Source: Natronorubrum halophilum
Lineage (GTDB): Archaea > Halobacteriota > Halobacteria > Halobacteriales > Natrialbaceae
NCBI RefSeq assembly: GCF_003670115.1
Contig: NZ_QQTY01000003.1
Coordinates: forward strand, 248,001 to 312,000
Direction of reading: 5' to 3'
DNA length: 64,000 bases
Every line of letters starts with the position of its first letter. Positions within the stretch are counted from its first letter, which is position 1. The position numbers and the translations under genes are program-made. Below are positions 37,242-64,000 of the stretch, piece by piece. The notes below the pieces were generated by a model that searched no databases, was not told where the DNA came from, and worked only from the letters and a program-made list of their open reading frames with translations.

Positions 37242-38274
37242 ATGGATCGAACGAGTGGCGGTACTACCGGTGTGGGCGAGCGGTGTCGTTTCGCTCGGCG
37301 GAAATTCCTGGCCCTCACCGGAATCGGGTTCACCGGAACGCTGGCTGGGTGCAGCGAACTCGAATCCCGCGCCGACGGATCGAAGACCAAGGACATCGAT
37401 CCTGACAACTCAGCGGGATTCGACGGGAGTTTCCTCGCCGAGTCGGCGAGTTCCCACATCGGAGCGACGGCGGCTCGAACGTCGTCTTCGACCACTGCTC
37501 AGTAAGCTGGGGCACTGACGAGAGCATCTCGACCAACAGCGGTCCCGAAAACCCGGACATCACGTTCAGCAACAACCTCATCGCGGAGTGCCTGAACGAC
37601 TCGATCCACCCGAAAGGAGCCCACTCTTACGGCACGCTCGTGATGGATCGCAGCAAACGGGTGACCATCGCGGGGAACCTGTGGGCGAACACGGTCGCCC
37701 GCCACCCGCGGCTCAAAGGCGGCTCGAGTTCGGTCGTCGCGAACAACGTGGGGTACAACTTCGAGCGCGCGCTCAACCTCGGCGGCGGCGTCGACGACGA
37801 GACGACCGCCACTATCATCCGGAACTACTACCGCGCCGGACCGCGGACGCCCACCGACGACACCGTCATCGGCACGACCTACACCGATGCGCAGGGGCCG
37901 ATAACAGCCTACATCGCGTACAACGAGACCGAGCCGAATTCGATGCCGGTGTCCGGAGCCGGGAGCGGGATCACGATGGCCGACAAACGCCCTTGTGGCC
38001 CGACGGACTGGAAACCGTTCCGGGATGGCAGGCCTACGAAGCCGTGTTCTCGGGTGTCGGGGCTCGTCCCGCCGACCGAGCGTACCACGACGAACGGATA
38101 CTCGAGCACGTTCGCGAAGGAACGGGATCGATTATCGACAGCCAGTCGGCCGTCGGCGGCTATCCCGAGCCAGCGACAACGACCCATTCGCTGGATGTGC
38201 CCGACGACGGCTTGGACGAGTGGCTCGCACAGTGGACTCGAGCCGTCGAGAACCCCGATGCGAGTCCGCCCTGA
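37242..38274 (+). pseudogene. Pectate lyase relic (Tat lipoprotein, internally deleted and frameshifted)
   Basis: The leader CRFARRKFLALTGIGFTGTLAGCSEL is a Tat/lipobox signal. After about 60 codons the frame jumps to SNVVFDHCSVSWGTDESIS and HPKGAHSYGTLVMDRSKRVTIAGNL, typical of the right-handed beta-helix of polysaccharide lyase family 1-like pectate lyases; the intervening part of the catalytic helix is missing. A second shift near 37985-37995 moves to WQAYEAVFSGVGARPADR and GSIIDSQSAVGGYP. The gene is therefore dead but shows that the island once degraded pectin. Confidence 0.75.
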
Positions 38275-50887: not shown

Positions 50888-51157
50888 TCAGCGCCGACGC
50901 CACCAGACGAAAGTGTAGAGACCCAGGCCGACGAGGACCAGCCCCGCTCCCCAGACGGCGAAGATGGCCGACCAAATGCCCATCAACTCGCCGTCTCCCG
51001 TGCCTCCCCCGTTTAGAAACGCGCCTAGCACGATGAAGACGACGCCCGCCGCCGCGATTTTCAACAGGATGGAGCCGAAGAGCGGTTCGAGTACTGATTC
51101 TCTGATATGAGAGATCGTTTCCGAATCGTTCGTTCGCTGCGTGGAACCCATTACCAC
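50888..51157 (-). CDS. Small membrane protein, two helices
   Basis: An 89-residue protein with two hydrophobic segments: LFGSILLKIAAAGVVFIVLGAFL (about 27-49, given in part) and WSAIFAVWGAGLVLVGLGLYTFVWW (about 62-86), ending WWRRR on the positive side. The N-terminal 25 residues are polar. I do not recognise a family. It is probably a genuine haloarchaeal small membrane protein; its start may be at 51157 or 51151. Confidence 0.6.
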   Translation of the reverse strand: MVMGSTQRTNDSETISHIRESVLEPLFGSILLKIAAAGVVFIVLGAFLNGGGTGDGELMGIWSAIFAVWGAGLVLVGLGLYTFVWWRRR

Positions 51158-51294
51158 GATAGTTCGCCGCTCCTGTATAAATTAGTTAGGGTTCGTCGCG
51201 CCGAGCCGATCGCCGGCGGACCCGTCGTCGCCGACGCCAGTAGTATTGCCGGAAAACAAACCTTCGTATGAGGGAGAACGAATAGCTAGCTCGA

Positions 51295-52749
51295 ATGCCG
51301 ACAGCGTACCGCAACTACGTCGATGGAGAGTGGGTAGAATCGAGTTCCGGAGATACGTTCGAGGTGCTGAACCCCGCGAACACGAACGAGGTCGTCGGGG
51401 AGTTCCAGTCCTCCTCGTCCGCGGACGCCGAGGCGGCGATCAAGGCCGCCGTCGCCGCCGAGGACGAGTGGGCGTCGACGCCCGGCCCGGAGCGGGGAGC
51501 GATCCTCAAGGAGACGGCGCAGATTCTCGAGGATCGGAAGGAGGAACTGACCGAGACGCTGACCCGCGAGGAGGGCAAGACGCTCGGCGAAGCCGGCGGC
51601 GAGGTCCAGCGCGCGATCGACATCTTCTACTACTATGCACAGAAGGCCAGCGACCTCGGCGGCACCGTCAAGTCGCCCAGCGGAGCCGACAAGGACCTCT
51701 TTACCAAACGCGAACCGCTGGGAACCGTCGCGCTGATCACGCCGTGGAACTACCCCATCGCGATCCCGGCCTGGAAGCTTGCACCCGCGCTGGCGGCCGG
51801 CAACACGGCCGTCCTCAAACCCGCCTCGGCGGCACCGACCGTCGCCCTGAAGCTGCTCGAGGCGCTCGACGACGCGGGACTGCCCGACGGCGTCGCGAAC
51901 TCCGTCACCGGCTCCGGCAGCGAAGTCGGCGGCGTGTTGACCGACCACGAGGGCGTCGACGCCGTCTCCTTCACCGGGAGCACGGCGGTCGGTACCGCCG
52001 TCGCACAGGCCGCCGCTGACGACCTCAAGCGCGTCCAGTGTGAGATGGGCGGGAAGAACCCGACGGTCGTGATGTCCAGCGCCGACGTCGACGAGGCGGT
52101 CGACATCGTTGGCGCCGGCGCGTTCGGCGTCACCGGCCAGGCCTGTACCGCCTGCTCCCGAGCGATCGTCCACGAGGACGTCTACGACGAGTTCGTCGCG
52201 GGGATCACCGAGTACGCCGAATCGATCGAGATCGGCCCCGGCGACGAGGACGTCGACATGGGCCCCCACGTCACGAACAGCGAACTGGAGGGCACGCTCG
52301 AGTACGTCGAGATCGCCGCGGAGGAAGACGGCGCGCCCCTCGAGACCGGCGGCGAGCGACTTACCGGCGACGAGTACGACGACGGCTACTACGTCGAACC
52401 GGCCGTCTTCTCGGACGTGGAAAACGACATGCGCATCGCCCAGGAGGAGGTCTTCGGTCCGGTGCTGGCAGTGTTGAAGGTCGGCGGCTTCGAGGAGGGT
52501 CTCGAGGTCGCCAACGACGTCGACTACGGCCTCTCGGCGAGTATCATCACGCAGGATCTCACCGAGGCCAACCAGTTCGCCGAGAACGTCGAGTCGGGCG
52601 TCGCGAAGGTCAACGAGAAGACGACCGGCCTCGAACTGCACGTCCCCTTCGGCGGCTACAAGGGATCCTCGACGAACACCTACCGCGAACAGGGCGACGC
52701 GGGGCTCGACTTCTTCACGTCGACGAAGACGGTCTACATGAACTACTAG
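51295..52749 (+). CDS. Aldehyde dehydrogenase (alpha-ketoglutarate semialdehyde dehydrogenase-like)
   Basis: A 484-residue NAD(P)-dependent aldehyde dehydrogenase. Catalytic elements are Asn152 (TPWNYPIA), Lys175 (VLKPAS), Glu250 (CEMGGKNP) and the nucleophile Cys284 (GQACTAC), followed by the C-terminal FGGYKGSS loop. In an oxidative uronate or pentose pathway the expected substrate is 2-oxoglutarate semialdehyde; this is inferred from the neighbouring sugar-acid dehydratases and DapA-family gene. The last 83 codons are duplicated at 61001-61249. Confidence 0.9.
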   Translation: MPTAYRNYVDGEWVESSSGDTFEVLNPANTNEVVGEFQSSSSADAEAAIKAAVAAEDEWASTPGPERGAILKETAQILEDRKEELTETLTREEGKTLGEAGGEVQRAIDIFYYYAQKASDLGGTVKSPSGADKDLFTKREPLGTVALITPWNYPIAIPAWKLAPALAAGNTAVLKPASAAPTVALKLLEALDDAGLPDGVANSVTGSGSEVGGVLTDHEGVDAVSFTGSTAVGTAVAQAAADDLKRVQCEMGGKNPTVVMSSADVDEAVDIVGAGAFGVTGQACTACSRAIVHEDVYDEFVAGITEYAESIEIGPGDEDVDMGPHVTNSELEGTLEYVEIAAEEDGAPLETGGERLTGDEYDDGYYVEPAVFSDVENDMRIAQEEVFGPVLAVLKVGGFEEGLEVANDVDYGLSASIITQDLTEANQFAENVESGVAKVNEKTTGLELHVPFGGYKGSSTNTYREQGDAGLDFFTSTKTVYMNY

Positions 52750-53868
52750 GTCGTCGGCCGACCGGTCCGCCCGTAGCACGTTATTTCGTTTTTTGCTCGT
52801 CCCGACAGTCGTCTCGCCGGTCAGTCGACGCCCGGCCCGGAGTTCGCTATCGCCACCGGGCGAAATCGATCGTTCACCGACTCGAGTCGACCGTCTCGAG
52901 GGACCGCTCGAACCGGTGCCGACGGCCGTTCACTCGTCGCCGAGGTGAGTCGGCGGGACGATCCCGGGTTGACCGAGTCGGAGGCGGTCGCCGACCTCGA
53001 TCTCCTCGATGATGCGGGGTACTCGAAGGTCGTCGCGGCCGCCGAGAGCGCGCCGGGATCGGCCTGGATCGACCGCCAGCGCCGCCAGTGGGTCGGCACC
53101 AGTCGATCGATCCCGAGGGCGTTCGCGGCCTCGATCACGTCCTGGGCGTCGTTGTACAGTTTCCGACGCTTGACGTCGCCGTCCATCACGATGCGGCCGC
53201 TGGTGCCGTAGGAAAGCATGCCCATGTCGATATCGAACTCCTCGCCGACGTCGTGGAACGCCTCGCAGGGGCGGTTGTCGCCGCCGTGGAAGATCGTCCC
53301 CTCCTCGTGCTCGAGCACGTAGGTGACGCTTCCGTCGGCGTCGGGGTCGCGGCCGCCCCGAACGTGGATCGTCAGGTCGCCGACCTCGTAGGTGTCGCCG
53401 GGTTCGACGGCCTCCTGCTGGTCCGGCGGAATCTCGCTCACGTCGTGGTTCTCGTAACACTCGGCCGGCGCGTGGACCGATCCCCCGTGGTCCAGCAGCG
53501 GGCCGAAGGACGGGGGCCAAAAGTGGTCGCGGTGGTCGTGGGTGCAGAACACGGCGTCACAGGAGTCAGCCCACTGAGGTTCCATCGGCACCGGCGGCAT
53601 CCGGGCGATGTACTCGCGGTCCCGCTCGGTGCTGAAGTAGGGGTCGATGAACACGGTGGTCTCCGGCGTCCTGATCGCCCAGCCCGTAACGCCGAGGAAC
53701 CACAGGGAGACGCCGTCCACCGAGGGTCCGTTGAACTCCTCGCGGGCCCACCACTTGCCCCAGTCGCTGTTGATCGTCATCGAGCCACCCGATAGCGCAC
53801 ACTGTCGATCTCGCTGATACGGTCCATGCGGAACCGATCCGCTCGAGCGTGCGTAAACCTTTCGACGC
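52501..53868. repeat. Segmental duplication, copy 1 (ALDH tail plus MBL gene)
   Basis: This segment matches 61001-62300: the last 83 codons of the aldehyde dehydrogenase, a variable spacer, the whole UlaG-like hydrolase on the opposite strand, and its upstream sequence up to TGCGTAAACCTTTCG. The first 26 bp of the shared block are identical and the offset is exactly 8500 bp through the dehydrogenase part. Confidence 0.8.
52930..53780 (-). pseudogene. UlaG-like metallo-beta-lactamase hydrolase, frameshifted copy
   Basis: From MTINSDWGKWWAREEF to AATTFEYP the frame matches the intact paralogue at 61362, including the metal motif CTHDHRDHFWPP. Then the frame is lost. In the shifted frame the proper end RIIEEIEVGDRLRLGQPGIVPP and THLGDE follows to 52930. 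One G is missing from the run at 53016-53019 (plus strand). Without repair the protein runs on to 52821 with a non-homologous tail. The defect may be real or a homopolymer error. Confidence 0.75.
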
Positions 53869-53948
53869 GGCTCCGCGCCCTCTTCGGGATCCTCCCGCCG
53901 ATCGCGATACGGCCGCTGTCCGCGGCGTGAAAATCGTTGAGACCGACG

Positions 53949-54785
53949 TTACTCCGGCGGCGCGTCCCACTCCTCGCCGTCGTCCTGCGGATCGTAGCCG
54001 ATCCGCGCTCGAGCGTGCTCGAGGTCGTACCAGCGCCGGCGGTTGTCGCTGACGCCGCTGAAGATATCGAACTCGACGCTGTCGTCCTGCAGACAGCACT
54101 CGATCTGGTGGGCGAAGTCCCGGCGGGACTGCCAGGTCGCTTTCATCCGCGCGACCTCCTCCTCGTACTCGTCGCTGCCGCGCTCCCAGTCGCCCTCCGC
54201 GACGCCGATCTCGGCGTCGCCGTAGGGATGGTCGTACTCCTCGCTCCGGACGCTACAGATTCGGAGCGCGTAGAACCGCGTCGGAAACTTACCGCCCTCG
54301 ACGTAGTACCGGCCGAGATCCTCGCCGAAACTCTTGGACGCGCCGTAGTAGGAGTCGGGACGAACGGGGTCGGTGTGATCGAGGACGAGGCCGTAGTCGC
54401 GCTCGTAGATCTCGGGCAGGTTCTCGAGTTCGTACATCCCCATCACGTGGTTGGTCGAGCCGAAGACGACGGACTCGACCTCGGCCTCCCGGGCGGCCTC
54501 GAGGACGTTGTACATGCCGAGGATGTTCGGCTCGAAGATATCGCTCCAGTCGCCGTCGGTGTAGGGGTAGGCGGCGAGGTGGACGATCGCGTCCTGACCC
54601 TCGCAGGCCTCGCGGAGCGTCTCGTAGTCCGCGATGTCGCCGACGACCGTCTCGTACTCGGCGTAGGGACCGGCGTCCCGGTCCGATCGATTGTAGTACG
54701 TGAACTCGTACCGATCGTCGTCTTGCAAGTGATCGATGATTGCGGTACCGCACCGACCGTACGAACCGGTTACTAGTACGTCCAT
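53949..54785 (-). CDS. udh: Uronate dehydrogenase-like NAD-dependent epimerase/dehydratase family protein
   Basis: A 278-residue short-chain dehydrogenase. It has the NAD motif VTGSYGRCGTAI at the N-terminus, DIADYETLREACEGQDAIVHLAAYP, the VVFGSTNHVMGMYE segment typical of uronate dehydrogenases, and the catalytic YGASK. Such enzymes oxidise D-galacturonate or D-glucuronate to the aldarolactone. Its place among lactonase, sugar-acid dehydratases and a ketoglutarate-semialdehyde-type dehydrogenase fits the oxidative uronate pathway. The symbol is assigned by similarity only. Confidence 0.8.
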   Translation of the reverse strand: MDVLVTGSYGRCGTAIIDHLQDDDRYEFTYYNRSDRDAGPYAEYETVVGDIADYETLREACEGQDAIVHLAAYPYTDGDWSDIFEPNILGMYNVLEAAREAEVESVVFGSTNHVMGMYELENLPEIYERDYGLVLDHTDPVRPDSYYGASKSFGEDLGRYYVEGGKFPTRFYALRICSVRSEEYDHPYGDAEIGVAEGDWERGSDEYEEEVARMKATWQSRRDFAHQIECCLQDDSVEFDIFSGVSDNRRRWYDLEHARARIGYDPQDDGEEWDAPPE

Positions 54786-54834
54786 ACGCCTAGCCCTCGG
54801 GGACTCACCATCAAAATACCGGTCCCATCCGGGA

Positions 54835-55293
54835 CTACTGCATCACGAGGGTCACCGGACCGTCGAAGTTCAACAGGACGCGTTGGGCGACGTCGCCGAA
54901 GATCGCCTTCCCAGTCGGCGACCGCTTGCGACCGACGAGAAAGATGTGATCGCAGGCCAGTCGATCGGCCGCTGAGAGGATCTCGTCGTCGAGACCGCCC
55001 TCCTCGGTGACGATGCCTTCGACGTCTACGTCGACGTCTACGTCGCCGAGTACGTCGTCGCTGAACTCCCGAGCGAACTGCCGCGTCATGGACACTTCGT
55101 CGGTTTCCTTGAACGTCGTTCCCTCCATCTTCTCGACCCACTCGAGCGCGTCGACGCTCTCCTCGGCCGCTTCGGGGGTCGTCCACGCGAGGACGACGAG
55201 CTCGGCGGCCCCGTTCCGTGCGAACGCGCCCGCTTCGGCGAGAAGTTGTCTGTGCGTTTCCGTGTCGTCTACGACGACGAGTGCTCGCTCCAT
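54835..55293 (-). CDS. Universal stress protein (UspA family)
   Basis: A 152-residue UspA protein similar to that at 43274, ending LVGRKRSPTGKAIFGDVAQRVLLNF with the nucleotide-binding loop. A run of alternating Asp-Val residues (DVDVDVDVEG, 55013-55052) is encoded by near-perfect GACGTC repeats and could vary in length. It precedes the uronate dehydrogenase gene on the same strand with a 50-bp gap, so it may be cotranscribed with it. Confidence 0.87.
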   Translation of the reverse strand: MERALVVVDDTETHRQLLAEAGAFARNGAAELVVLAWTTPEAAEESVDALEWVEKMEGTTFKETDEVSMTRQFAREFSDDVLGDVDVDVDVEGIVTEEGGLDDEILSAADRLACDHIFLVGRKRSPTGKAIFGDVAQRVLLNFDGPVTLVMQ

Positions 55294-55372
55294 ACTGGTC
55301 GCGCCGGATGGCAGTCAGATAAAGCTACCTCCGGTCGCGGGCGTCGAATGAGTATCACGACGGCTTCGCCAG

Positions 55373-56506
55373 TCAGTCAGCGCGGTACCGTTCCAGCGCG
55401 TCGCGGTCGATTTCGATGCCCAGTCCCGGACTCTGCGGGACGTCGATGGTGCCGCCGGTCGGATCGAACGGCGTCTCGAGCAACTCGCTCCGCAGCGGGT
55501 TCTCGCTGCGATCGAACTCGATCACCATCGGTTCGGGGACGTTGCGCGTGTGGGGATAGCTCGAGATGCTCGCGCCGAACTGTACCGCGGCGGCCATGCC
55601 GACGGCACTGTTCCAGATGTGCGGCCTGACGGCGACGTTCTCGGTCGAGGCCATGCCCGCGATCAACCGCGCCTCCGAGAGGCCGCCACAGCGACCGAGG
55701 TTCGGCTGGACGATGTCGACCGTCCGATCGTCGATCAACTCTTTAAACTCGAATCGTCCGTAGTGGGCTTCGCCGGCGGCGATGGGGACATCGATCTTCC
55801 CGCGTAGTTCGCGGTATCCCGACCGGTTCTCCGGCGGGACGGGCTCTTCGATCCAGGCCACGTCGTACTCCTCGATGGCCCGTGCCGACTTGACGGCCTG
55901 GTGGGGACGATAGTTGCCGTTCATATCGACCATCAGATCGGCGTCGTCACCCATGATCTCCCGCGCCGTGCGCACGCGCTCGACGTCGGACTTGAGGCCC
56001 GCCCCGATCTTGATCTTCGCGGCGGTAAACCCCTCCTCGACGGCCTCGCGGATCGGCTCCGCGATCGGTCGATCCGCTTCGGTGAAGTACATCGTCGACG
56101 CGTAGGGAGTCAACTCCTCGCAACGCGTGCCGCCGAGCAGCCGGTGGACCGGCCGACCGACGCTCTTTCCGATGATGTCCCAGCAGGCGACGTCGATCGC
56201 GCTGACGGCGCTCTGGACGACCACGTCGCCGCCGAAGTGGTACGGATCGGTGTAGGACGTCTCGGCGAGCGATTCGACCTCGAAGGGGTCCATGCCGACG
56301 ACGTCGTCCACGAACATGGTTTCAATGGTCGCCGTCGCCATCGGCCCCGGCGCGAACGCCTCGCCCCAGCCGACGGTGCCGTCATCGGTCTCGAGGCGTA
56401 CCAGCGTCGTCCCGCGGTCGGTCCCGAAGCCTCGCGCGTCGCCGAGTCCGTGCCCGTCGGGGAGCGAGTGTGCGAGCGGAATCACCTGAACGTCCGTGAT
56501 CTCCAT
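55373..56506 (-). CDS. Enolase-superfamily sugar-acid dehydratase (mandelate racemase subgroup)
   Basis: A 377-residue enolase-superfamily enzyme. The capping domain (MEITDVQVIPLAHSL) is followed by a barrel with the acid/base lysine pair AAKIKIG, metal ligands in DMNGNY, WIEEPVPP and AAGEAHYG, and the histidine base in RPHIWNSAVG. The KxK plus His arrangement is that of the mandelate racemase subgroup, which includes galactarate, glucarate and gluconate dehydratases. The start at 56506 is used because upstream residues precede the domain. It is divergent from the DapA-family gene, an ideal pathway partner. Confidence 0.88.
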   Translation of the reverse strand: MEITDVQVIPLAHSLPDGHGLGDARGFGTDRGTTLVRLETDDGTVGWGEAFAPGPMATATIETMFVDDVVGMDPFEVESLAETSYTDPYHFGGDVVVQSAVSAIDVACWDIIGKSVGRPVHRLLGGTRCEELTPYASTMYFTEADRPIAEPIREAVEEGFTAAKIKIGAGLKSDVERVRTAREIMGDDADLMVDMNGNYRPHQAVKSARAIEEYDVAWIEEPVPPENRSGYRELRGKIDVPIAAGEAHYGRFEFKELIDDRTVDIVQPNLGRCGGLSEARLIAGMASTENVAVRPHIWNSAVGMAAAVQFGASISSYPHTRNVPEPMVIEFDRSENPLRSELLETPFDPTGGTIDVPQSPGLGIEIDRDALERYRAD

Positions 56507-56628
56507 AGCGAACCCGACAGACTCGCGTCCAATATAGCTTGCGTTGCACCGAGTGCGAGATCGCGAACGAGCCGAGCGGACCCAGGGATACATTCATCAC
56601 TTCGGTTCGTCGTAGTACCGACCACGAC

Positions 56629-57564
56629 ATGCCCAGAGCTGGCCTCAGAGTGCGTTTCCGAGACGTCGCATTCACCACCGCCGTGCCGTTCAGCGACGAC
56701 GGATCGGGCGTGCTGTTCGACGAACTCACCGACAACCTCGCGACGCAGTACGAGGCCGGCGCTCGCCTGTTCATCCCCTGTGGTAACACGGGCGAGTACT
56801 ACTCGCTGACCGACGAGGAGCGGATCGAGATCGTCGAGACCCACGTCGAGGCGACCGGCGACGAGGCGACGATCGCCGGCGGCGTCGCCGGCAGCCTCCG
56901 GGAGGTCGAACGACTCGCCGACGCCTACGAGGACGCCGGGGCGGACGCGATCATGGTGATGCACCCCGACCACACCTACCTGCACCAGCGCGGGTTGGCG
57001 AACTACTACCACCGGATCTGCGACGCGACCGACCTCGGTGTCGTCATCTACAAGCGCGGTCCCGAGGTTCCGCGGGACGTAATCGTCGACCTGAGCGAGC
57101 GCGAGAGCGTCGTCGCGGTGAAGTTCGCGGTGAACGACGTCAGGGAATTCTCCCAGACCGTCGCGGACGCACCCGGCGAGGTGACCTGGGTCAACGGGAT
57201 CGCAGAGCGGTACGCGCTCTCCTTTGCCATCGAGGGAGCGACGGGCTTTACCACCGGTCTCGGAAACTTCGCGCCAGCGGCGACGCTGGCGCTGTTCGAC
57301 GCCGTCGAGAACGAGAACTGGGAGGTGGCCCGATCGATCCAGCGTCTGCTGCGCCCGATCGAGGACCTCCGCGAGGAATCTGGCGAGGGGAACGCGCTCT
57401 CGGCCGCGAACAACGTGCCCGTCGTCAAGTACGGCATGGATCTCGCGGGGCACACCGGCGGACCGGTGCGCGACCCGCTGGTCGACCTCTCCGCGGACGA
57501 TGCGGTGCGCCTCGAGGAGTACTACGACCAACTCCAGTCGACACCGGTGCTGGAAACGGCCTGA
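56629..57564 (+). CDS. DapA-family keto-deoxy sugar acid aldolase/dehydratase
   Basis: A 311-residue TIM-barrel Schiff-base enzyme. It shows PCGNTGEYYSLTDEERI (phosphate/carboxylate loop), the tyrosine in GVVIYKRGP and the Schiff-base lysine in VVAVKFAVND, then WVNGIAERYALSFAIEGATGFTTGLGNF. Members include 5-keto-4-deoxyglucarate dehydratase (decarboxylating, giving 2-oxoglutarate semialdehyde) and 2-keto-3-deoxygluconate aldolase. The context favours the former. The ATG at 56629 was chosen because the preceding in-frame residues are antisense to the promoter of the divergent dehydratase. Confidence 0.87.
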   Translation: MPRAGLRVRFRDVAFTTAVPFSDDGSGVLFDELTDNLATQYEAGARLFIPCGNTGEYYSLTDEERIEIVETHVEATGDEATIAGGVAGSLREVERLADAYEDAGADAIMVMHPDHTYLHQRGLANYYHRICDATDLGVVIYKRGPEVPRDVIVDLSERESVVAVKFAVNDVREFSQTVADAPGEVTWVNGIAERYALSFAIEGATGFTTGLGNFAPAATLALFDAVENENWEVARSIQRLLRPIEDLREESGEGNALSAANNVPVVKYGMDLAGHTGGPVRDPLVDLSADDAVRLEEYYDQLQSTPVLETA

Positions 57565-57637
57565 GTTCGGACGCGCGGTCGACCGCTCGCGCCGACAGCG
57601 AACGGCGTCGAAACGAGAGCACTGGTTCTTCCGCGCC

Positions 57638-58882
57638 CTACTCGTCGTCGTAGCGGAACTCCGTCCACGGACCGTCGACGAACGAGTACTCCTCGATGAC
57701 GTCGAGATCGACATCGACGCCGAGTCCGGGCCCGTCCGGCACGGTCAGGTGGCCGTCATCGATTTCCGGCTGTCCTTCGATGATGTCGAAGGCGAGATCG
57801 AACGGGTACATTCCGGGATCGGTCTCCGCATCGGGGAGCGCCGGGTTGCCCTCGAAGATGGGATACTCGAGCAGTTGCACGTCCGGTGCCGCGGCGACGA
57901 GGTGGGCGTTGGCCTGCAGTCCGAGCCAGGTGCCGAAGTTGTGCGGGACGAACTCGACGTCGCGGCCGTCGCAGTACTCGACCGCGTCCCGGCAGCCGGT
58001 AAAGCCCTCGTGGTGGCGGACGTCGCCCTGCAGGAAGTCGACCGCGCCGGTCTTACCGAGTTCGACCAGCCCCGCCGGCGACTCCTCGCTCTCCCCGCCG
58101 GCCAGCGGCGCGCCGGTCTCGGCCAGTTCGACGTATCCCGCGTGGTCGTCGGGTTCGACCGGCTCCTCGATCCAGTAAGCGCCCCGTTCGGCGGCGTGTT
58201 CGACCAGTTCGCGGACGGTGTCGCGCCCGTACGCTTCGCCGAGCTTCCACCAAGTGTGGACGTCGAGCATGATCTCGATGTCATCGACCGCGTCGGCGAG
58301 CGAGTCGACCGTCCGGCGGTCGCCGTCGGGGCCGATCCCGGGTCGGTACTTGTAGCCGAAAAAGCCCTGTTCCTCGAGCACTTCGGCCTGTTCGACGTAC
58401 CCGTCCGGCTCCATGTACATCCCGGCGCTGGCGTACAGCGGCATCTCGGTCGTCGGCTCGGTCTCGTACTCCTCGGCCAGCAGTTCGTAGATCGGTGCGC
58501 CGACCTCCTTGCCGCGGATGTCGTACAGCGCGACATCGACGGCCGAGATCGCTTCCGTCCGAAGGTGAGCGGGGAGGTCCGCCGCCGCGATCAGGTCGTG
58601 GGCATCGGCGATCGCGTCGATCGACGCGCCCTCGAGCGCGTCGGCGACGGACTCCTCGATGACGTCGGCGAACGTCCCCTGCGAGTCGCCTTCGAAGTAC
58701 TCGCGCATCGCGGAACTGCTCGCGCCCGCGGTCGCGAATCCCTGGCGGCCGTCTCGAGTCTCCAGAACGACGAGAACGACGTCTCGCTTGCGGAGCCGCC
58801 GCACGCCGCCGAAGAACGGGCGTTCCTGTACCGGATCGATCGGAGAAGAGAGCGCGTACCCTCTCACGTCAGCGATATCCAT
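57638..58882 (-). CDS. Enolase-superfamily sugar-acid dehydratase
   Basis: A 414-residue enolase-superfamily protein, distinct from the one at 55373. Catalytic region: FFGYKYRPGIG (lysine-bearing strand), metal ligands in MLDVHTWW, WIEEPVEP and AGGESEESPAG, and the histidine in FVPHNFGTWLG. The start at 58882 (MDIADVRGYALSS) fits the capping domain and a TATA-like ATTATTTATATG about 30 bp upstream. It converges on the DapA-family gene. A fragment of a homologue survives at 62755. Substrate is probably an aldarate or aldonate. Confidence 0.85.
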   Translation of the reverse strand: MDIADVRGYALSSPIDPVQERPFFGGVRRLRKRDVVLVVLETRDGRQGFATAGASSSAMREYFEGDSQGTFADVIEESVADALEGASIDAIADAHDLIAAADLPAHLRTEAISAVDVALYDIRGKEVGAPIYELLAEEYETEPTTEMPLYASAGMYMEPDGYVEQAEVLEEQGFFGYKYRPGIGPDGDRRTVDSLADAVDDIEIMLDVHTWWKLGEAYGRDTVRELVEHAAERGAYWIEEPVEPDDHAGYVELAETGAPLAGGESEESPAGLVELGKTGAVDFLQGDVRHHEGFTGCRDAVEYCDGRDVEFVPHNFGTWLGLQANAHLVAAAPDVQLLEYPIFEGNPALPDAETDPGMYPFDLAFDIIEGQPEIDDGHLTVPDGPGLGVDVDLDVIEEYSFVDGPWTEFRYDDE

Positions 58883-59218
58883 AGTCAGCCTATTTGCACC
58901 CGGCCATATAAATAATGCGAGTGACTGATAGCGGGAAACCACCGCGTCGACGGGAGTGCCCTGACCACTCCTGCATTTTCAGCGCCTTCGTCGCTCCCGC
59001 ATCTAGCGCGATCGGCTCGAGCGCGACAGCGCTACGGTGACAGGTCGTACACGACTCGATCGCGCTGAACGCGACGACGAGTTTTCTGCCGTCGGGAATC
59101 GAAACCGCGGTCTGAACCGATCGCGTTAGAGAGCGGCTCTTCCGGTCGTGTTCGTCCAGTTCGTGTTCGATCGCGCTCGCTCCCATCGGCCTCGAAGGCG
59201 ACAGAATGACGTGGCGTG

Positions 59219-59396
59219 TTACCATTCCTTCTGTTCGCTAATCGGGAACAGATCCTCGAAAATCCGGCTGCTGTGAGTCTCCTCCCACTCGACCGGACGA
59301 GCGAGTCGACCGGATCTCGAACGCGCTTTTCCACCGTTGGCGATGCTACACCCGGAATCGCCCCGTTGTTCGGGGTGAATCGACCTGAGACGTCAT
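59219..59396 (-). pseudogene. Small frameshifted ORF with a strong ribosome-binding site
   Basis: GGAGGAAA directly precedes an ATG at 59396 (MTSQVDSPRTTGRFRV, then stop). One base out of frame, a coding-like stretch reads SIANGGKARSRSGRLARPVEWEETHSS and ends RIFEDLFPISEQKEW before a stop at 59219. Combining the two gives a protein of about 58 residues. No family is recognised. The strong Shine-Dalgarno sequence is unusual here, as most starts in the window look leaderless. Confidence 0.3.
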
Positions 59397-59514
59397 TTTC
59401 CTCCTGCGAATTCGCCGTATTCCGAGTTTGTGGGCCGTGAACCCGAGTTATTCGGTGCACGTGCGGATGACTCTCCAGCCACTCGATCCTAGATACTCTT
59501 TCGCATACGACGTA

Positions 59515-59536
59515 TTTACAAACGTATGTCTGTAAT
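59515..59536. repeat. 22-bp palindrome, copy 7
   Basis: TTTACA AAC GTAT GTC TGTAAT, first of a tandem pair 27 bp apart (centre to centre), about 140 bp before the ThuA gene. Confidence 0.5.
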
Positions 59537-59541
59537 CTCTT

Positions 59542-59563
59542 TTTACAGCAGTACTACTGTAAC
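59542..59563. repeat. 22-bp palindrome, copy 8
   Basis: TTTACA GCA GTAC TAC TGTAAC, second of the pair. It carries the GTAC core and nearly perfect outer arms, and lies about 110 bp before the ThuA start. Confidence 0.55.
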
Positions 59564-59674
59564 GTTCGCGAGGGGTGAATAGGTGGGTCGCGATCGCTGC
59601 TCCTGTCCCGGCCACTCGACACAAGCGACCCGCGATCCCGGAAACTTATCACCGCTCCCGACGACCCATCGCGT

Positions 59675-60400
59675 ATGACCCTTCGCGTCACGGTTTGGAA
59701 CGAGAACGTTCACGAGCGAGAGGAGCCAGCGGTCGCCGAGCGGTACCCCGACGGGATCCACGGGGCGATAGCGGACGCACTCGAGGGCGACGAACGCGTC
59801 GTTCGGACGGCCACGCTCGAGGAACCCGACAACGGCTTGTCCGAAGACGTCCTCGCGAACACCGACGTCCTCGTGTGGTGGTCTCACTGCGCGAACGACG
59901 AGGTCGACGACGACGTCGCCGAACGCGTCGTCGATCGGGTTCACGAGGGGATGGGCTTCGTTCCGGTCCACTCCGGAAAGAACTCGAAGCCGTTCAAACG
60001 GCTGATGGGAACGACCTGTAACATCAAGTACCGTCATAGCGGCGAGACGGAACGGCTCTGGGTCGCAGACCCCGGTCATCCGATCGTCGACGGCCTCGAG
60101 GAGTCGTTCGAGATCCCAAAGACGGAGATGTACGGCGAGCCGTACGACGTTCCGGAACCCGACCGCACCGTCCTCATCTCGTGGTTCGAGGGCGGCGAAG
60201 TGTTCCGCTCCGGCGTCTGTTACCGCCGCGGCCGCGGTCACATCTTCGCGTTCCGCCCGGGTCACGAGGCGTACCCGATCTTCTATCAGGATGAGGTTCG
60301 GACAGTGCTCGATAACGCCGTCCAGTGGGCGGCCCCGACCGACGGAAGCGAGGCGATCTGGGGCGAGGTCGAACCGATCGAATCGCTGGACGGCGACTGA
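59675..60400 (+). CDS. ThuA-domain protein (trehalose-utilisation family)
   Basis: A 241-residue ThuA-like protein with a class I glutamine-amidotransferase-type fold. Matching segments are [21 protein letters not shown] and IHGAIADAL at the N-terminus, [36 protein letters not shown] (the pocket motif), GHPIVDGL and [18 protein letters not shown]. Members occur in sugar-catabolic operons with Gfo/Idh/MocA enzymes and are thought to act in ketosugar metabolism. A TATA-like element is about 28 bp before the ATG. It stands alone and precedes the Tat-lectin gene. Confidence 0.88.
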
Positions 60401-60544: not shown

Positions 60545-61054
60545 ATGAGACAAACAAGACGAACCTATCTAAAAGGAACGGCAGTATCGGCACTGATCGG
60601 AACCGGAGCGTTAAGCGGTCTCAGCGGGTCGGCGATGGCCCAACTCGCCAGCGCTTCCCAGTTCGGAATCGATGACGGGTTCGCGGACACGTCGTGGCTC
60701 GACGACGGCGTCGACGTCTACCGGATCACCGAACCCACACGCGCGGCCGTCGAGGAGGGCAGTTCGCCGCCCGACGGCGGTAACGGCGACGACGGCGACA
60801 CCGGCGGTCTGATCTCGACCGGCACCTACGAAATCACGAACGTCAACAGTGGGCAACTGCTCGAGGTCGCAAACGCCGAGACGACCGACGGAGCGAACGT
60901 CCAGCAACACTCCGACACCGGCCACGCAACCCAGCAGTGGTACATCGAGGAAACGGAGGACGGCGAGTATCTCCTCGAGAACGAAAACAGCGGCCTATTG
61001 CTCGAGGTCGCCAACGACGTCGACTATGATCTTTCGGCCAGCATCGTCACGTAG
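60545..61054 (+). pseudogene. Tat-exported ricin-lectin protein fused to an aldehyde dehydrogenase tail
   Basis: The Tat leader (MRQTRRTYLKGTAVSALIG) is followed by a short region with SQFGIDDGFADTSWLDDGVDVYR, a Gly/Asp linker and a ricin-type beta-trefoil repeat (GTYEITNVNSGQLLEVANAE, HATQQWYIEETEDGEYLL). At LLEVAND the sequence changes in frame to the C-terminal part of the aldehyde dehydrogenase (DVDYDLSASIV), then stops at a TAG where the dehydrogenase has CAG. The rest of the tail, ending TVYLNY at 61249, is untranslated. The catalytic domain originally attached to the lectin is unknown. Confidence 0.75.
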
Positions 61055-62300
61055 GACCTCACCGAGGCCAACGAGTTCGCCGAGAGCGTCGAGTCGGGTG
61101 TCGCGAAGGTCAACGAGAAGGCGGCCGCGATCGAGCTCCACACCCCCTTCGGCGGCTACAAGGGGTCCTCGACGGACACCTATCGCGAACAGGGCGACGC
61201 CGGGCTGGACTTCTTCACGTCGATGAAGACGGTCTATCTGAACTACTAGACGGTCGCCATCGCCGTCCCATAGCAAACGGATTTTCTCGTGCCGGCCCTC
61301 ACGGACCGGTCGTTCGCGACGTAGCGGCTGTACTCGCGCCCGTGAGTTCGGAGACGGCCGTTCACTCGCCGCCAAGGCGGGTCGGCGGGACGATCCCGGG
61401 GTGGCCGAGTCGGAGGCGGTCGCCAACCTCGACCTCCTCGATGACGCGCGGGTACTCCCAGGGCGTGGCTGCCTTCGAGAGCGCGCCCGGGTCTGCCTGT
61501 ATCGACCGCCACCGTCGCCAATGGGTCGGCACCAACCGGTCGATCCCGACGGCGTTCGCGGCGTCGATCACGTCCTGTGTGTTGTTGTACAGCTTCCGGC
61601 GGATGATGTCGCCGTCGTCTAGGAGACGAGCCGTCGTCCCGTACGACAGCATCCCCATGTCGACGTCGAACTCCTCGCCAACCTCGTGGAAGGCCTCGCA
61701 GGGACGGTTGTCGCCGCCGTGGAAGATCGCCCCCTCCTCGTGCTCGAGCACGTAGGTGACGCTTCCGTCGGCGTCGGGATCGCGGCCGTCTCGCACGTGG
61801 ATCGTCAGATCGCCGATCTCGTAGGTGTCACCGGGTTCGACGACGATCTGCTTCTCCTTGAGGACGTCGCTCACGTCGTGGTTCTCGTAACACTCTGGCG
61901 GCGCGTACACCGATCCGCCGTGCTCGAGCAGGGGGCCGAACGAGGGCGGCCAGAAGTGGTCGCGGTGGTCGTGCGTGCAGAACACGGCGTCGCAGGCCTC
62001 GGCCCACTGCGGTTCCATCGGCACCGGCAGCATCCGCGCGATGTACTCACGGTCCCGTTCGGTGCTGAAGTACGGGTCGATGAAGATCGTCGTTTCGCTC
62101 GTCCTGATCGCCCAGCCGGTCACGCCGAGGAACCACAGGGAGACACCCTCGACCGGCGACCCGTAGAGCTCCTCGCGGGCCCACCACTCGCCCCAGTCGC
62201 TGTTGATCGTCATCGACTCACCCGATAATCTGTACTGTAGGCCTCACTGTTGCGATCCATGCGAAACCGTTCCGCTCGGCGGTGCGTAAACCTTTCGGCG
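61001..62300. repeat. Segmental duplication, copy 2 (ALDH tail plus MBL gene)
   Basis: Counterpart of 52501-53868. The dehydrogenase part is degenerate (in-frame TAG at about 61052-61054), whereas the UlaG-like gene is intact. The left junction falls inside the identical stretch CTCGAGGTCGCCAACGACG, which also happens to encode LEVAN in the lectin. Confidence 0.8.
61362..62213 (-). CDS. UlaG-like metallo-beta-lactamase-fold hydrolase
   Basis: A 283-residue MBL-fold enzyme with the metal-binding CTHDHRDHFWPPSFGP, the FIDPYFSTERDREYIARM substrate segment, IFHGGDNRPCEAF and the terminal THWRRWRS motif. It belongs with the UlaG/lactonase-like branch, which includes L-ascorbate-6-phosphate lactonase, so hydrolysis of a sugar lactone is plausible. 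It is the intact copy of the frameshifted gene at 52930. Confidence 0.87.
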   Translation of the reverse strand: MTINSDWGEWWAREELYGSPVEGVSLWFLGVTGWAIRTSETTIFIDPYFSTERDREYIARMLPVPMEPQWAEACDAVFCTHDHRDHFWPPSFGPLLEHGGSVYAPPECYENHDVSDVLKEKQIVVEPGDTYEIGDLTIHVRDGRDPDADGSVTYVLEHEEGAIFHGGDNRPCEAFHEVGEEFDVDMGMLSYGTTARLLDDGDIIRRKLYNNTQDVIDAANAVGIDRLVPTHWRRWRSIQADPGALSKAATPWEYPRVIEEVEVGDRLRLGHPGIVPPTRLGGE

Positions 62301-62754
62301 TGATTCCGCGTCGCGGGTACGGACCTGCTTCGCAGTAGTTTGTGATACCCTTTCGTTATTCCGGCCGGAGTCTGGACCCGAGTCTCTTCGATTTCGGTAC
62401 GTGCATGTGCCAACCTTTTGCTCTGCGCTTCTTCGCTTCGGTCGGGCGCTCGGCAAAACGGTGACGAAAAGCACTCCTACCTCTCCTCCGGGTCGGTCGT
62501 TGGCCGGTCCGCTCGTTCCCTTTGGTCGCTCACGGTGAGTGCACATTTCCCCGCCTCTCCTATCCGGAGGTTTCGCGCTCAAAACCGAATATGAAACCAC
62601 AGTCGCTTCGATAACGTGGTATTTAAGGGGAGTTCCCCCATCGGGAACGATTCATATATGCCACGTGACATCACTCTATCCAACGTGTCATAGGAGGATC
62701 GGATACCCCGGCTGGCCCAGATCTTTTAGGATAGTTTGGTCAGTTGTCTCGGTA
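62301..62754. other. Regulatory spacer before enolase remnant
   Basis: No supported gene. Contains the GTTCCC-N5-GGGAAC site at 62632 and TATA-like elements at 62619 (TATTTAAGG) and 62652 (TTCATATATG). Confidence 0.5.
62632..62648. promoter_or_regulatory. GTTCCC-N5-GGGAAC operator, second copy
   Basis: Perfect 6-bp arms and a 5-bp spacer, as at 38729. It ends 3 bp before a TATA-like TTCATATATG and about 105 bp before the enolase relic at 62755. A TATA-like TATTTAAGG also lies on its left. It probably once controlled the enolase-superfamily gene now broken downstream. Confidence 0.55.
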
Positions 62755-62985
62755 TGGCGATTGCTCATATCTTTGAATACGCTCTGTCACCACCAATCAT
62801 GCTGCATCAGGACAATCAAGCCGCATCAAGATTGCCAGTTCCACGGTGGCTACCGCCACCTGCTCAAACGCGACGCCGTCCTCGTTGTCGTCGAGACTGG
62901 CGACGACACTCGCGGTGTCGCCATCACTGGCGCGAGCAGTTCGGCCATGACGGAATATTTCGAAGGCGATTCACAGGCGAGGACA
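62755..62985 (+). pseudogene. N-terminal fragment of enolase-superfamily dehydratase
   Basis: The reading MAIAHIFEYALSPPI, then after a shift FHGGYRHLLKRDAVLVVVETGDDTRG and GASSSAMTEYFEGDSQ, matches the first 75 residues of the gene at 57638 (MDIADVRGYALSSPI; GGVRRLRKRDVVLVVLETRDG; GASSSAMREYFEGDSQ). At about 62985 it meets the inverted DapA fragment. One frameshift and the lack of a barrel domain show it is dead. Confidence 0.7.
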
Positions 62986-63230
62986 CAGGCGTCGTCTGGG
63001 AGAGATTCGACGACTGTCTTGGCGGAGTCTATCCGTTCCTGCTGGGACAGTGAATGATATTCGCTGATGTTAGCCGTCGTGAGAAACGTCTGGATCCCTT
63101 CGTCGTAAAGGTCGTGAGCGTTCTCCGCGAGTTCACTGTGATTAATTTCACGACTTTTGTCAAATGGTGTGAGGAGTCCGACGGCGACACCCTGCAGGTG
63201 TTCCTGAACCCGGTTGGCTAGCAGCGACAT
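62985..63230 (-). pseudogene. N-terminal fragment of a DapA-family enzyme
   Basis: The frame MSLLANRVQEHLQGVAVGLLTPFDKSREI (opening split), then FLTTANISEYHSLSQQERIDSAKTVVESL matches the first 80 residues of DapA-family enzymes; the loop TANISEYHSL corresponds to GNTGEYYSL. It ends at the junction with the enolase fragment. With the C-terminal piece at 41997-42515 it could represent two parts of one lost gene. Confidence 0.6.
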
Positions 63231-63659
63231 GGATTTAGAATTCGGCGCGGGCGAGATAAATCCATCACTCGTTCGAGAAACTGATTACAGGCGACGCAAC
63301 GACGAGCTGGATTCCCTGTTGACGAATCGTCGCTTCCCGCTCAGACGTGATCTTCTCGATCCGTTCCGGCCCGGTATCGCCCTGCGGCCGACGAGCAGGC
63401 GTTGGAACGCGGCAACCTCAGGGGACGCCCGGGTTGATAGCCGATATACGCATTTAGCACCTCACCAGACGGAACGTTCTCAACTCGATGCCACTCGTAT
63501 TAGATAGGCGCCCGAACCCACTCCACTATACCTCTCGCAGATACTCCGGTCCGAATGAGAGCCGCTGACTCTATCAGGCTGCCAGTGTCTTCATTCAAGC
63601 CGGTTCGGCTGAGTAGGTCGTCGGAAAAGAATAAGTACCGCCGTTTCTACCATACTCGT
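63231..63659. other. Spacer before family 4 glycosidase gene
   Basis: A 97-codon plus-strand frame from 63214 overlaps this region but lacks recognisable motifs and is rich in Arg, so I do not accept it. The last 40 bp (AAGAATAAGTACCG near 63628) could provide a promoter for the next gene. Confidence 0.45.
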
Positions 63660-64000
63660 ATGCGTTCCAAGCAATTGCCTCATCGTGAGGAGACCGAAGA
63701 GAAAGCGTTGCCGTCACTGCCGGAAGACGAAATCAAGATCACGTACATCGGCGGCGGAGCCCGCGAGTGGCCGCCGAAACTGTTCCGCGACCTCGCGCTC
63801 TGTTCGGACATCGAGGGCGAAGTCGCGCTGTTCGACCTAGATTATGAGAGCGCCCAGCTGAACGCCGAATTCGGCAACTGGGTCCAGGAGCAGGACGGAG
63901 CGGTCGGTGACTGGACATACACGGCGGTCGAAGACCGGGCGGAGGCGCTCGAAGGCACCGACTTCGTCATCCTATCCACGCAGTTCAACCCGGCCGAGAC
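63660..64000 (+). CDS. Glycoside hydrolase family 4-like protein (partial, runs off window)
   Basis: The first 113 codons are present. After a polar start (MRSKQLPHREETEEKALPS) the sequence IKITYIGGGAREWPPKLFRDLAL is the NAD-binding N-terminus of GH4 enzymes. LFDLDYESAQLNAEFGN and TDFVILSTQFNPAE continue the Rossmann fold. GH4 members include alpha-glucosidases and alpha-galacturonidases, which use NAD and a divalent metal. An alpha-galacturonidase would fit the pectin island, but the discriminating residues lie beyond the window. Confidence 0.8.
   Translation, partial: MRSKQLPHREETEEKALPSLPEDEIKITYIGGGAREWPPKLFRDLALCSDIEGEVALFDLDYESAQLNAEFGNWVQEQDGAVGDWTYTAVEDRAEALEGTDFVILSTQFNPAE

What the first reader, a model, noticed from the sequence alone, without database searches (positions are those of the whole stretch)
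60545..61249. Ricin-lectin protein joined to an aldehyde dehydrogenase tail
The Tat-lectin frame passes without a break into dehydrogenase sequence at LEVAND, because both genes contain CTCGAGGTCGCCAACGACG. This looks like microhomology-driven recombination that replaced the lectin gene's 3' end and generated a chimeric secreted protein ending at an in-frame TAG.
Basis: seen in the sequence. Interest (0 to 1): 0.6.

Follow-up and report, generated by a model that had tools for sequence, protein, structure and literature searches.

The report
Recombination scar through dead pectate-lyase gene
The 'lectin–dehydrogenase fusion' is the wreck of a secreted pectin-degrading enzyme gene in a salt-loving archaeon, cut off where a stretch of DNA from another genus was spliced in at a few matching bases; it is a well-preserved example of an ordinary accident, not a new working protein.

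Summary
The junction is real, but the reading needs correcting. Window 60545-61054 is an open 169-codon frame: Tat-type signal, linker, about half a ricin-type lectin, then 12 residues of aldehyde dehydrogenase (ALDH) and a TAG. Relatives show that it is not a lectin gene that lost only its 3' end. It is the remnant of a secreted pectate lyase-lectin protein of about 570 residues, intact beside the same ThuA gene in Natrialba and other genera. Here its catalytic domain (about 340 codons) is deleted in frame at 60745-60758, and the second half of the lectin is gone. The ALDH tail was not copied from the neighbouring ALDH (88% identical): it starts a 15.6 kb island 95-96% identical to G104, a genome of another genus with a complete ALDH (sampled core identity mostly 78-80%). 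The joint lies exactly at CTCGAGGTCGCC(AACG…), about 12-16 bp shared by lectin and ALDH codes. The TAG is a C-to-T change in a tail that evolves like a pseudogene. The fusion occurs in no other genome searched (125 family, 392 class). It is most likely a non-functional scar of microhomology-directed illegitimate recombination at the edge of inter-genus DNA transfer.

The parts
60545..60757 (+). N-terminal remnant (Tat-type signal and the first 71 residues) of a secreted pectate lyase–ricin lectin protein
   Evidence: 79% identical to residues 1-71 of the 572-aa protein of G082, beside ThuA in relatives
60745..60758 (+). Joint J1: in-frame deletion of about 340 codons (catalytic domain) at GGCCGTCGAGGAGG (AVEE)
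   Evidence: query residues 1-71 and 68-157 match the two ends of full-length relatives; short similarity between the two flanks in relatives
60746..61015 (+). Linker plus about one and a third of the three ricin-type lectin repeats
   Evidence: 72% identical to residues 407-498 of 572 in G082; PF14200 E=1.5e-19
61001..61019 (+). Joint J2: CTCGAGGTCGCCAACGACG, lectin to ALDH; left boundary of the G104-like island
   Evidence: similarity to G104 ALDH starts abruptly here and continues at 95.5%; lectin relatives share 12 exact bp
60545..61054 (+). Chimeric open frame, 169 codons plus TAG
61001..61249 (+). 3' end (82 codons plus stop) of a 2,5-dioxovalerate-type aldehyde dehydrogenase gene, broken by TAG at 61052 (CAG in G104)
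61362..62213 (-). Intact metallo-beta-lactamase-fold hydrolase (MBL2), convergent with the ALDH tail, part of the island
   Evidence: 95% identical to G104, 84% to the window's other copy 52821-53780
62598..62607 (.). Joint J3 inside the island: 7.75 kb present in G104 is missing; at most about 1 bp shared
   Evidence: G104 C3 137445 to 145196
62713..62979 (+). Fragment of a mandelate racemase/enolase-type gene
   Evidence: tblastn 45% to the window MR_MLE, residues 13-89; 83% DNA identity to a broken copy in G104
62972..62980 (.). Joint J4: 1.3 kb deletion relative to G104, about 2 bp shared
62978..63230 (-). N-terminal fragment of a DHDPS/KDG-aldolase-family gene
   Evidence: PF00701 E=5.7e-5; 95% identical to G104
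59675..60400 (+). ThuA-family gene, syntenic neighbour of the pectate lyase in relatives
51295..52749 (+). Intact resident ALDH (not the source of the tail)
   Evidence: 88% to the tail; 86% to G104

Best explanation
The locus is a recombination scar in a resident pectin-degradation gene cluster of a haloarchaeon (family of Natrialba). DNA from a relative of G104, a different genus carrying the same cluster, entered the cell. Its left end was joined illegitimately to the resident secreted pectate lyase gene where both encode LEVA(N), at about 12-16 bp of matching sequence (CTCGAGGTCGCC...). This put a donor ALDH 3' end, the donor metallo-hydrolase and about 15 kb of donor DNA behind the truncated lectin domain. 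A separate in-frame deletion between two short similar stretches (AVEE...AVEE) removed the catalytic domain, further deletions (J3, J4) removed redundant donor genes, and a C-to-T change made the TAG. The 169-codon frame is most likely a pseudogene: a Tat signal, a linker and half a lectin without a catalytic domain. Shown by sequence: the anatomy, the donor-like island and its exact left edge, the deletions, the absence elsewhere. Inferred: the direction of transfer, the molecular route (microhomology-mediated end joining, or strand invasion with one illegitimate end), the order of events, and loss of function.
For: Chimera residues 1-93 and 67-157 match the two ends of proteins of 567-572 aa beside ThuA in G082, G037, G035, G034, G051, G052 and G057; three Natrialba species carry such a protein. 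Window 61001-62598 and 62972-76610 (the end lies beyond the window) match G104 C3 at 95.5-96.4%, while 51118-60396 match it at only 80-86%, and a sampled core region mostly 78-80%. Alignment to G104 collapses to background immediately before CTCGAG. At the joint, four lectin relatives share 12 exact bp with the G104 ALDH; only about 5e-6 of all position pairs lie in runs of 12 or more. Native order resumes right of the island at a DHDPS gene, 83-86% identical in four relatives where it lies 11-23 kb downstream of the pectate lyase. ALDH tail against G104: 9 of 12 changes at codon positions 1 and 2, including CAG to TAG, against 12 of 34 in the neighbouring hydrolase (p=0.02). No other genome among 125 (family) and 392 (class) has the joint.
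Against: The resident lectin sequence beyond the joint is lost, so the exact length of shared sequence is inferred from relatives. The ALDH-tail changes are few and partly clustered; merging the cluster gives p=0.13. The lectin remnant shows no significant relaxation compared with a control lineage (p=0.26). The frame is still open, so translation is not excluded. The right end of the island lies at a repeat that may be an IS remnant, so its mechanism is unclear.
Confidence: 0.88

Rival explanations
1. Local event: part of the window's own ALDH–hydrolase pair was duplicated within the replicon and fused to the lectin gene, with no foreign DNA.
For: A homologous ALDH–hydrolase pair lies 8.5 kb upstream in the same order.
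Against: The tail and hydrolase are 94-96% identical to G104 but only 84-88% to the local copies, and about 96% identity to G104 continues for 15.6 kb, most of which has no local counterpart in the window.
Confidence: 0.04
2. The chimera is a functional small secreted carbohydrate-binding protein kept by selection.
For: Open frame with an intact Tat-type signal; the joint keeps the reading frame; the upstream ThuA neighbourhood is conserved.
Against: Only about 1.3 of 3 lectin repeats remain, the W of DGANVQQW that is invariant in seven relatives is H here, 12 foreign residues end at a new nonsense codon, it is found in one genome only, and no selection signal was detected.
Confidence: 0.04
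3. Assembly artefact joining two unrelated stretches.
For: No reads could be inspected.
Against: The assembly has 8 contigs and is rated 99.99% complete, the joint is far from contig ends, donor and native orders run on at both sides, and the tail carries its own substitutions.
Confidence: 0.03

Closest known systems
Homology-facilitated illegitimate recombination (defined in the abstract of PMC3240628)
   Same: Foreign DNA joined to a resident sequence at an illegitimate end with short shared sequence, next to related DNA that could serve as anchor
   Different: The homologous anchor end was not identified; the right end of the island lies at a repeat that may be an IS remnant
Microhomology-mediated end joining in haloarchaea (Haloferax volcanii, abstract of PMC7521656)
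   Same: Joints at short repeats, as at J1 and J2
   Different: A natural, inter-genus joint; J3 and J4 have only 1-2 bp; the enzymes involved are unknown
Pectate lyase PelZ-like (NF041900) plus RicinB_lectin_2 (PF14200) secreted enzymes of haloarchaea
   Same: N- and C-terminal parts 70-79% identical and syntenic beside ThuA
   Different: Catalytic domain and half of the lectin are missing
Inter-species recombination in haloarchaea (reviewed in PMC4500145)
   Same: Multi-kilobase stretch of about 96% identity shared by two genera
   Different: The edge falls inside genes at non-allelic positions and leaves a chimeric frame

Membership tests
PelZ-like pectate lyase with ricin-type lectin (intact enzyme) | Catalytic beta-helix domain | tested here: not met
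   Residues 72 to about 408 of relatives (where NF041900, PF00544 and the pectate lyase structure 9buj match) are absent
PelZ-like pectate lyase with ricin-type lectin (intact enzyme) | Complete three-repeat beta-trefoil lectin | tested here: not met
   PF14200 covers residues 91-158 only; relatives carry the lectin over about 429-563
PelZ-like pectate lyase–lectin gene (as remnant) | Sequence and synteny | tested here: met
   Best hits to full-length genes beside ThuA in 7 genomes
2,5-dioxovalerate dehydrogenase (NF052305) | Full-length ALDH | tested here: not met
   Only the last 82 codons remain, with an internal TAG; the intact copy at 51295-52749 scores 861 bits against a cut-off of 750
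Homology-facilitated illegitimate recombination | One illegitimate end with short shared sequence | tested here: met
   Exact left edge at 61001 with about 12-16 bp similarity
Homology-facilitated illegitimate recombination | Other end joined by homologous recombination | tested here: inconclusive
   Right end at C3:324610 lies in a truncated aldo/keto-reductase-like reading frame beside a repeat; 84% DHDPS homology resumes 285 bp on

The most novel reading that the evidence does not exclude
Inter-genus recombination between homologous sugar-degradation clusters at non-allelic coding microhomology (LEVAN codons shared by a lectin and an ALDH) has generated a new secreted mini-lectin that is made and used.
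Probability: 0.03. Interest if true: 0.55.

Novelty: new member of a known kind. Interest (0 to 1): 0.25.

Why it matters
It is an unusually legible fossil of how haloarchaea exchange DNA across genera: the donor type, the exact joint, the shared bases and the later decay can all be read. It warns that an open frame with a Tat signal can be a doubly deleted pseudogene. It also shows that the edges of transferred segments can fall at chance coding similarity between unrelated genes.

Tried and rejected
Local duplication of the window's ALDH was rejected on identity (88% against 94-96% to G104). Conserved fusion: none found in genus, family or class searches; one scan of genome contigs gave three Natrialba species with the intact type only. 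Selection on the lectin remnant: inconclusive. An intact copy of the pectate lyase elsewhere in the genome: none, only the C-terminal lectins of other proteins and a frameshifted homologue at 37.4-38.3 kb. The origin of the short peptide at the right end of the island was not identified beyond a repeated element. The paper on homology-facilitated illegitimate recombination holds no passage on microhomology length under the words tried.

Full report
The observation. The window is G000:C3:248001-312000 of a 4.67 Mb haloarchaeal genome. From ATG 60545 a 169-codon frame encodes a Tat-type signal, a short region, a linker and a ricin-type lectin segment (PF14200, residues 91-158, E=1.5e-19), then runs into LEVANDVDYDLSASIVT and stops at TAG 61052-61054. 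In the same frame the ALDH sequence goes on to its natural TAG at 61247-61249. The 19-mer at 61001 recurs exactly at 52501 in the intact ALDH 51295-52749, a 2,5-dioxovalerate dehydrogenase (NF052305, 861 bits). So the junction exists, but the protein ends 195 bases before the end given in the finding.

What the lectin half is. In the family search, residues 1-93 and 67-157 of the chimera match two places about 1.2 kb apart in one gene. These genes encode Tat-type proteins of about 567-572 residues, present in G082, G037, G035, G034, G072, G051, G052 and G057; three such loci belong to Natrialba taiwanensis, asiatica and aegyptia. The middle resembles pectate lyases (NF041900 PelZ, E=4.9e-51 though below its cut-off; structure 9buj, E=1.5e-12; PF00544 weak) and the end is a ricin-type lectin. 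In all of these except G072 (ThuA not seen in the stretch fetched) the gene lies directly after, or one lyase gene away from, the same ThuA-family gene as in the window. The window gene has therefore lost about 340 codons. The joint..RAAVEEGSSPP.., combines ..RAAVEEAFHAS.. near the N-terminus with ..AQAVEEGSSPP.. near the linker; the two flanks, as judged from relatives, share about 9-14 bp there. No intact copy exists elsewhere in the genome.

What the dehydrogenase half is. The match to the local ALDH is 88% over 256 bp and continues as an 83-90% match through the convergent metallo-hydrolase gene. A far better match exists: G104, of another genus in the same family. Window 61001-62598 is 95.5% and 62972-64000 96.4% identical to G104 C3, whereas 51118-60396 is 80-86%. 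With flanking sequence fetched, the 96% similarity runs to C3:324610, 12.6 kb beyond the window, in the order of G104 apart from several indels, and then stops; a sampled core region is mostly 78-80% identical between the two genomes. The next best genome over 61260-63660 is 82-83% identical. The island begins exactly at the CTCGAG of the 19-mer: to the left there is no similarity to the G104 ALDH, to the right 26 bases are identical. G104 has the whole ALDH, so it resembles the donor. To the right, a DHDPS-family gene of native type (83-86% to G037, G082, G035 and G077, where it lies 11-23 kb downstream of the pectate lyase) resumes the resident order. The island thus sits in the slot of resident cluster DNA.

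The shared bases. The claim that both genes contain the 19-mer cannot be checked directly, because the resident lectin sequence beyond the joint is gone. In relatives this place reads CTCGAGGTCGCC followed by GAC or a similar triplet: 12 exact bases shared with the G104 ALDH in four genes, with 13-16 of 19 positions matching. Between such a gene and the donor region only about 5e-6 of all position pairs lie in runs of 12 or more, so the similarity at the joint is unlikely to be coincidence. Frame continuity follows from both genes encoding LEVA(N) in the same phase.

Decay. Two more joints lie inside the island: at about 62598, where 7.75 kb of G104 sequence is missing (1 bp shared), and at 62972-62980, where 1.3 kb is missing (about 2 bp shared), leaving a mandelate-racemase-like fragment against a DHDPS fragment. 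The TAG at 61052 is CAG in G104. The tail differs from G104 at codon positions 1/2/3 by 5/4/3, against 7/5/22 for the adjacent hydrolase and 4/1/13 for the intact resident ALDH (p=0.02, weaker if clustered changes are merged). This fits a dead tail beside a living hydrolase gene. For the lectin remnant the test is inconclusive.

Function and mechanism. Lectin-less pectate lyases occur naturally (G028 and G077 end near the linker), so joint J2 alone may have been tolerated; loss of the catalytic domain is what leaves no enzyme. The order of J1 and J2 is not known. Microhomology-mediated end joining is documented in Haloferax (abstract of PMC7521656) and recombination between haloarchaeal species is well known (PMC4500145); homology-facilitated illegitimate recombination is defined in PMC3240628. 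The anatomy fits these, but the homologous anchor of the island was not found, so the exact route is inference.

Verdict. Interest is modest.

Noticed in passing
37466-38271: A second pectate-lyase-like gene in the window is broken by a frameshift (39% and 47% matches in two frames), so the strain may be losing pectate lyase capacity.
   Followed up: partly
62598-63230: Two deletion joints inside the imported segment leave fragments of a mandelate-racemase-like gene and a DHDPS-family gene back to back on opposite strands.
   Followed up: partly
L117:12610-12895 (G000:C3:324610-324895, right of the window): Right edge of the imported island: an aldo/keto-reductase-like frame cut after about 35 codons next to a repeat with a hairpin that recurs at other places and at a contig end, possibly an IS remnant.
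   Followed up: partly
61001-64000 and on to C3:324610: A 15.6 kb segment is 95-96% identical to another genus (G104) while sampled core DNA is mostly 78-80%: recent inter-genus transfer.
   Followed up: yes
L085 (G104:C3:145345-146120): G104 itself carries an internally deleted mandelate-racemase-like gene, so decay of duplicated cluster genes also occurs there.
   Followed up: no
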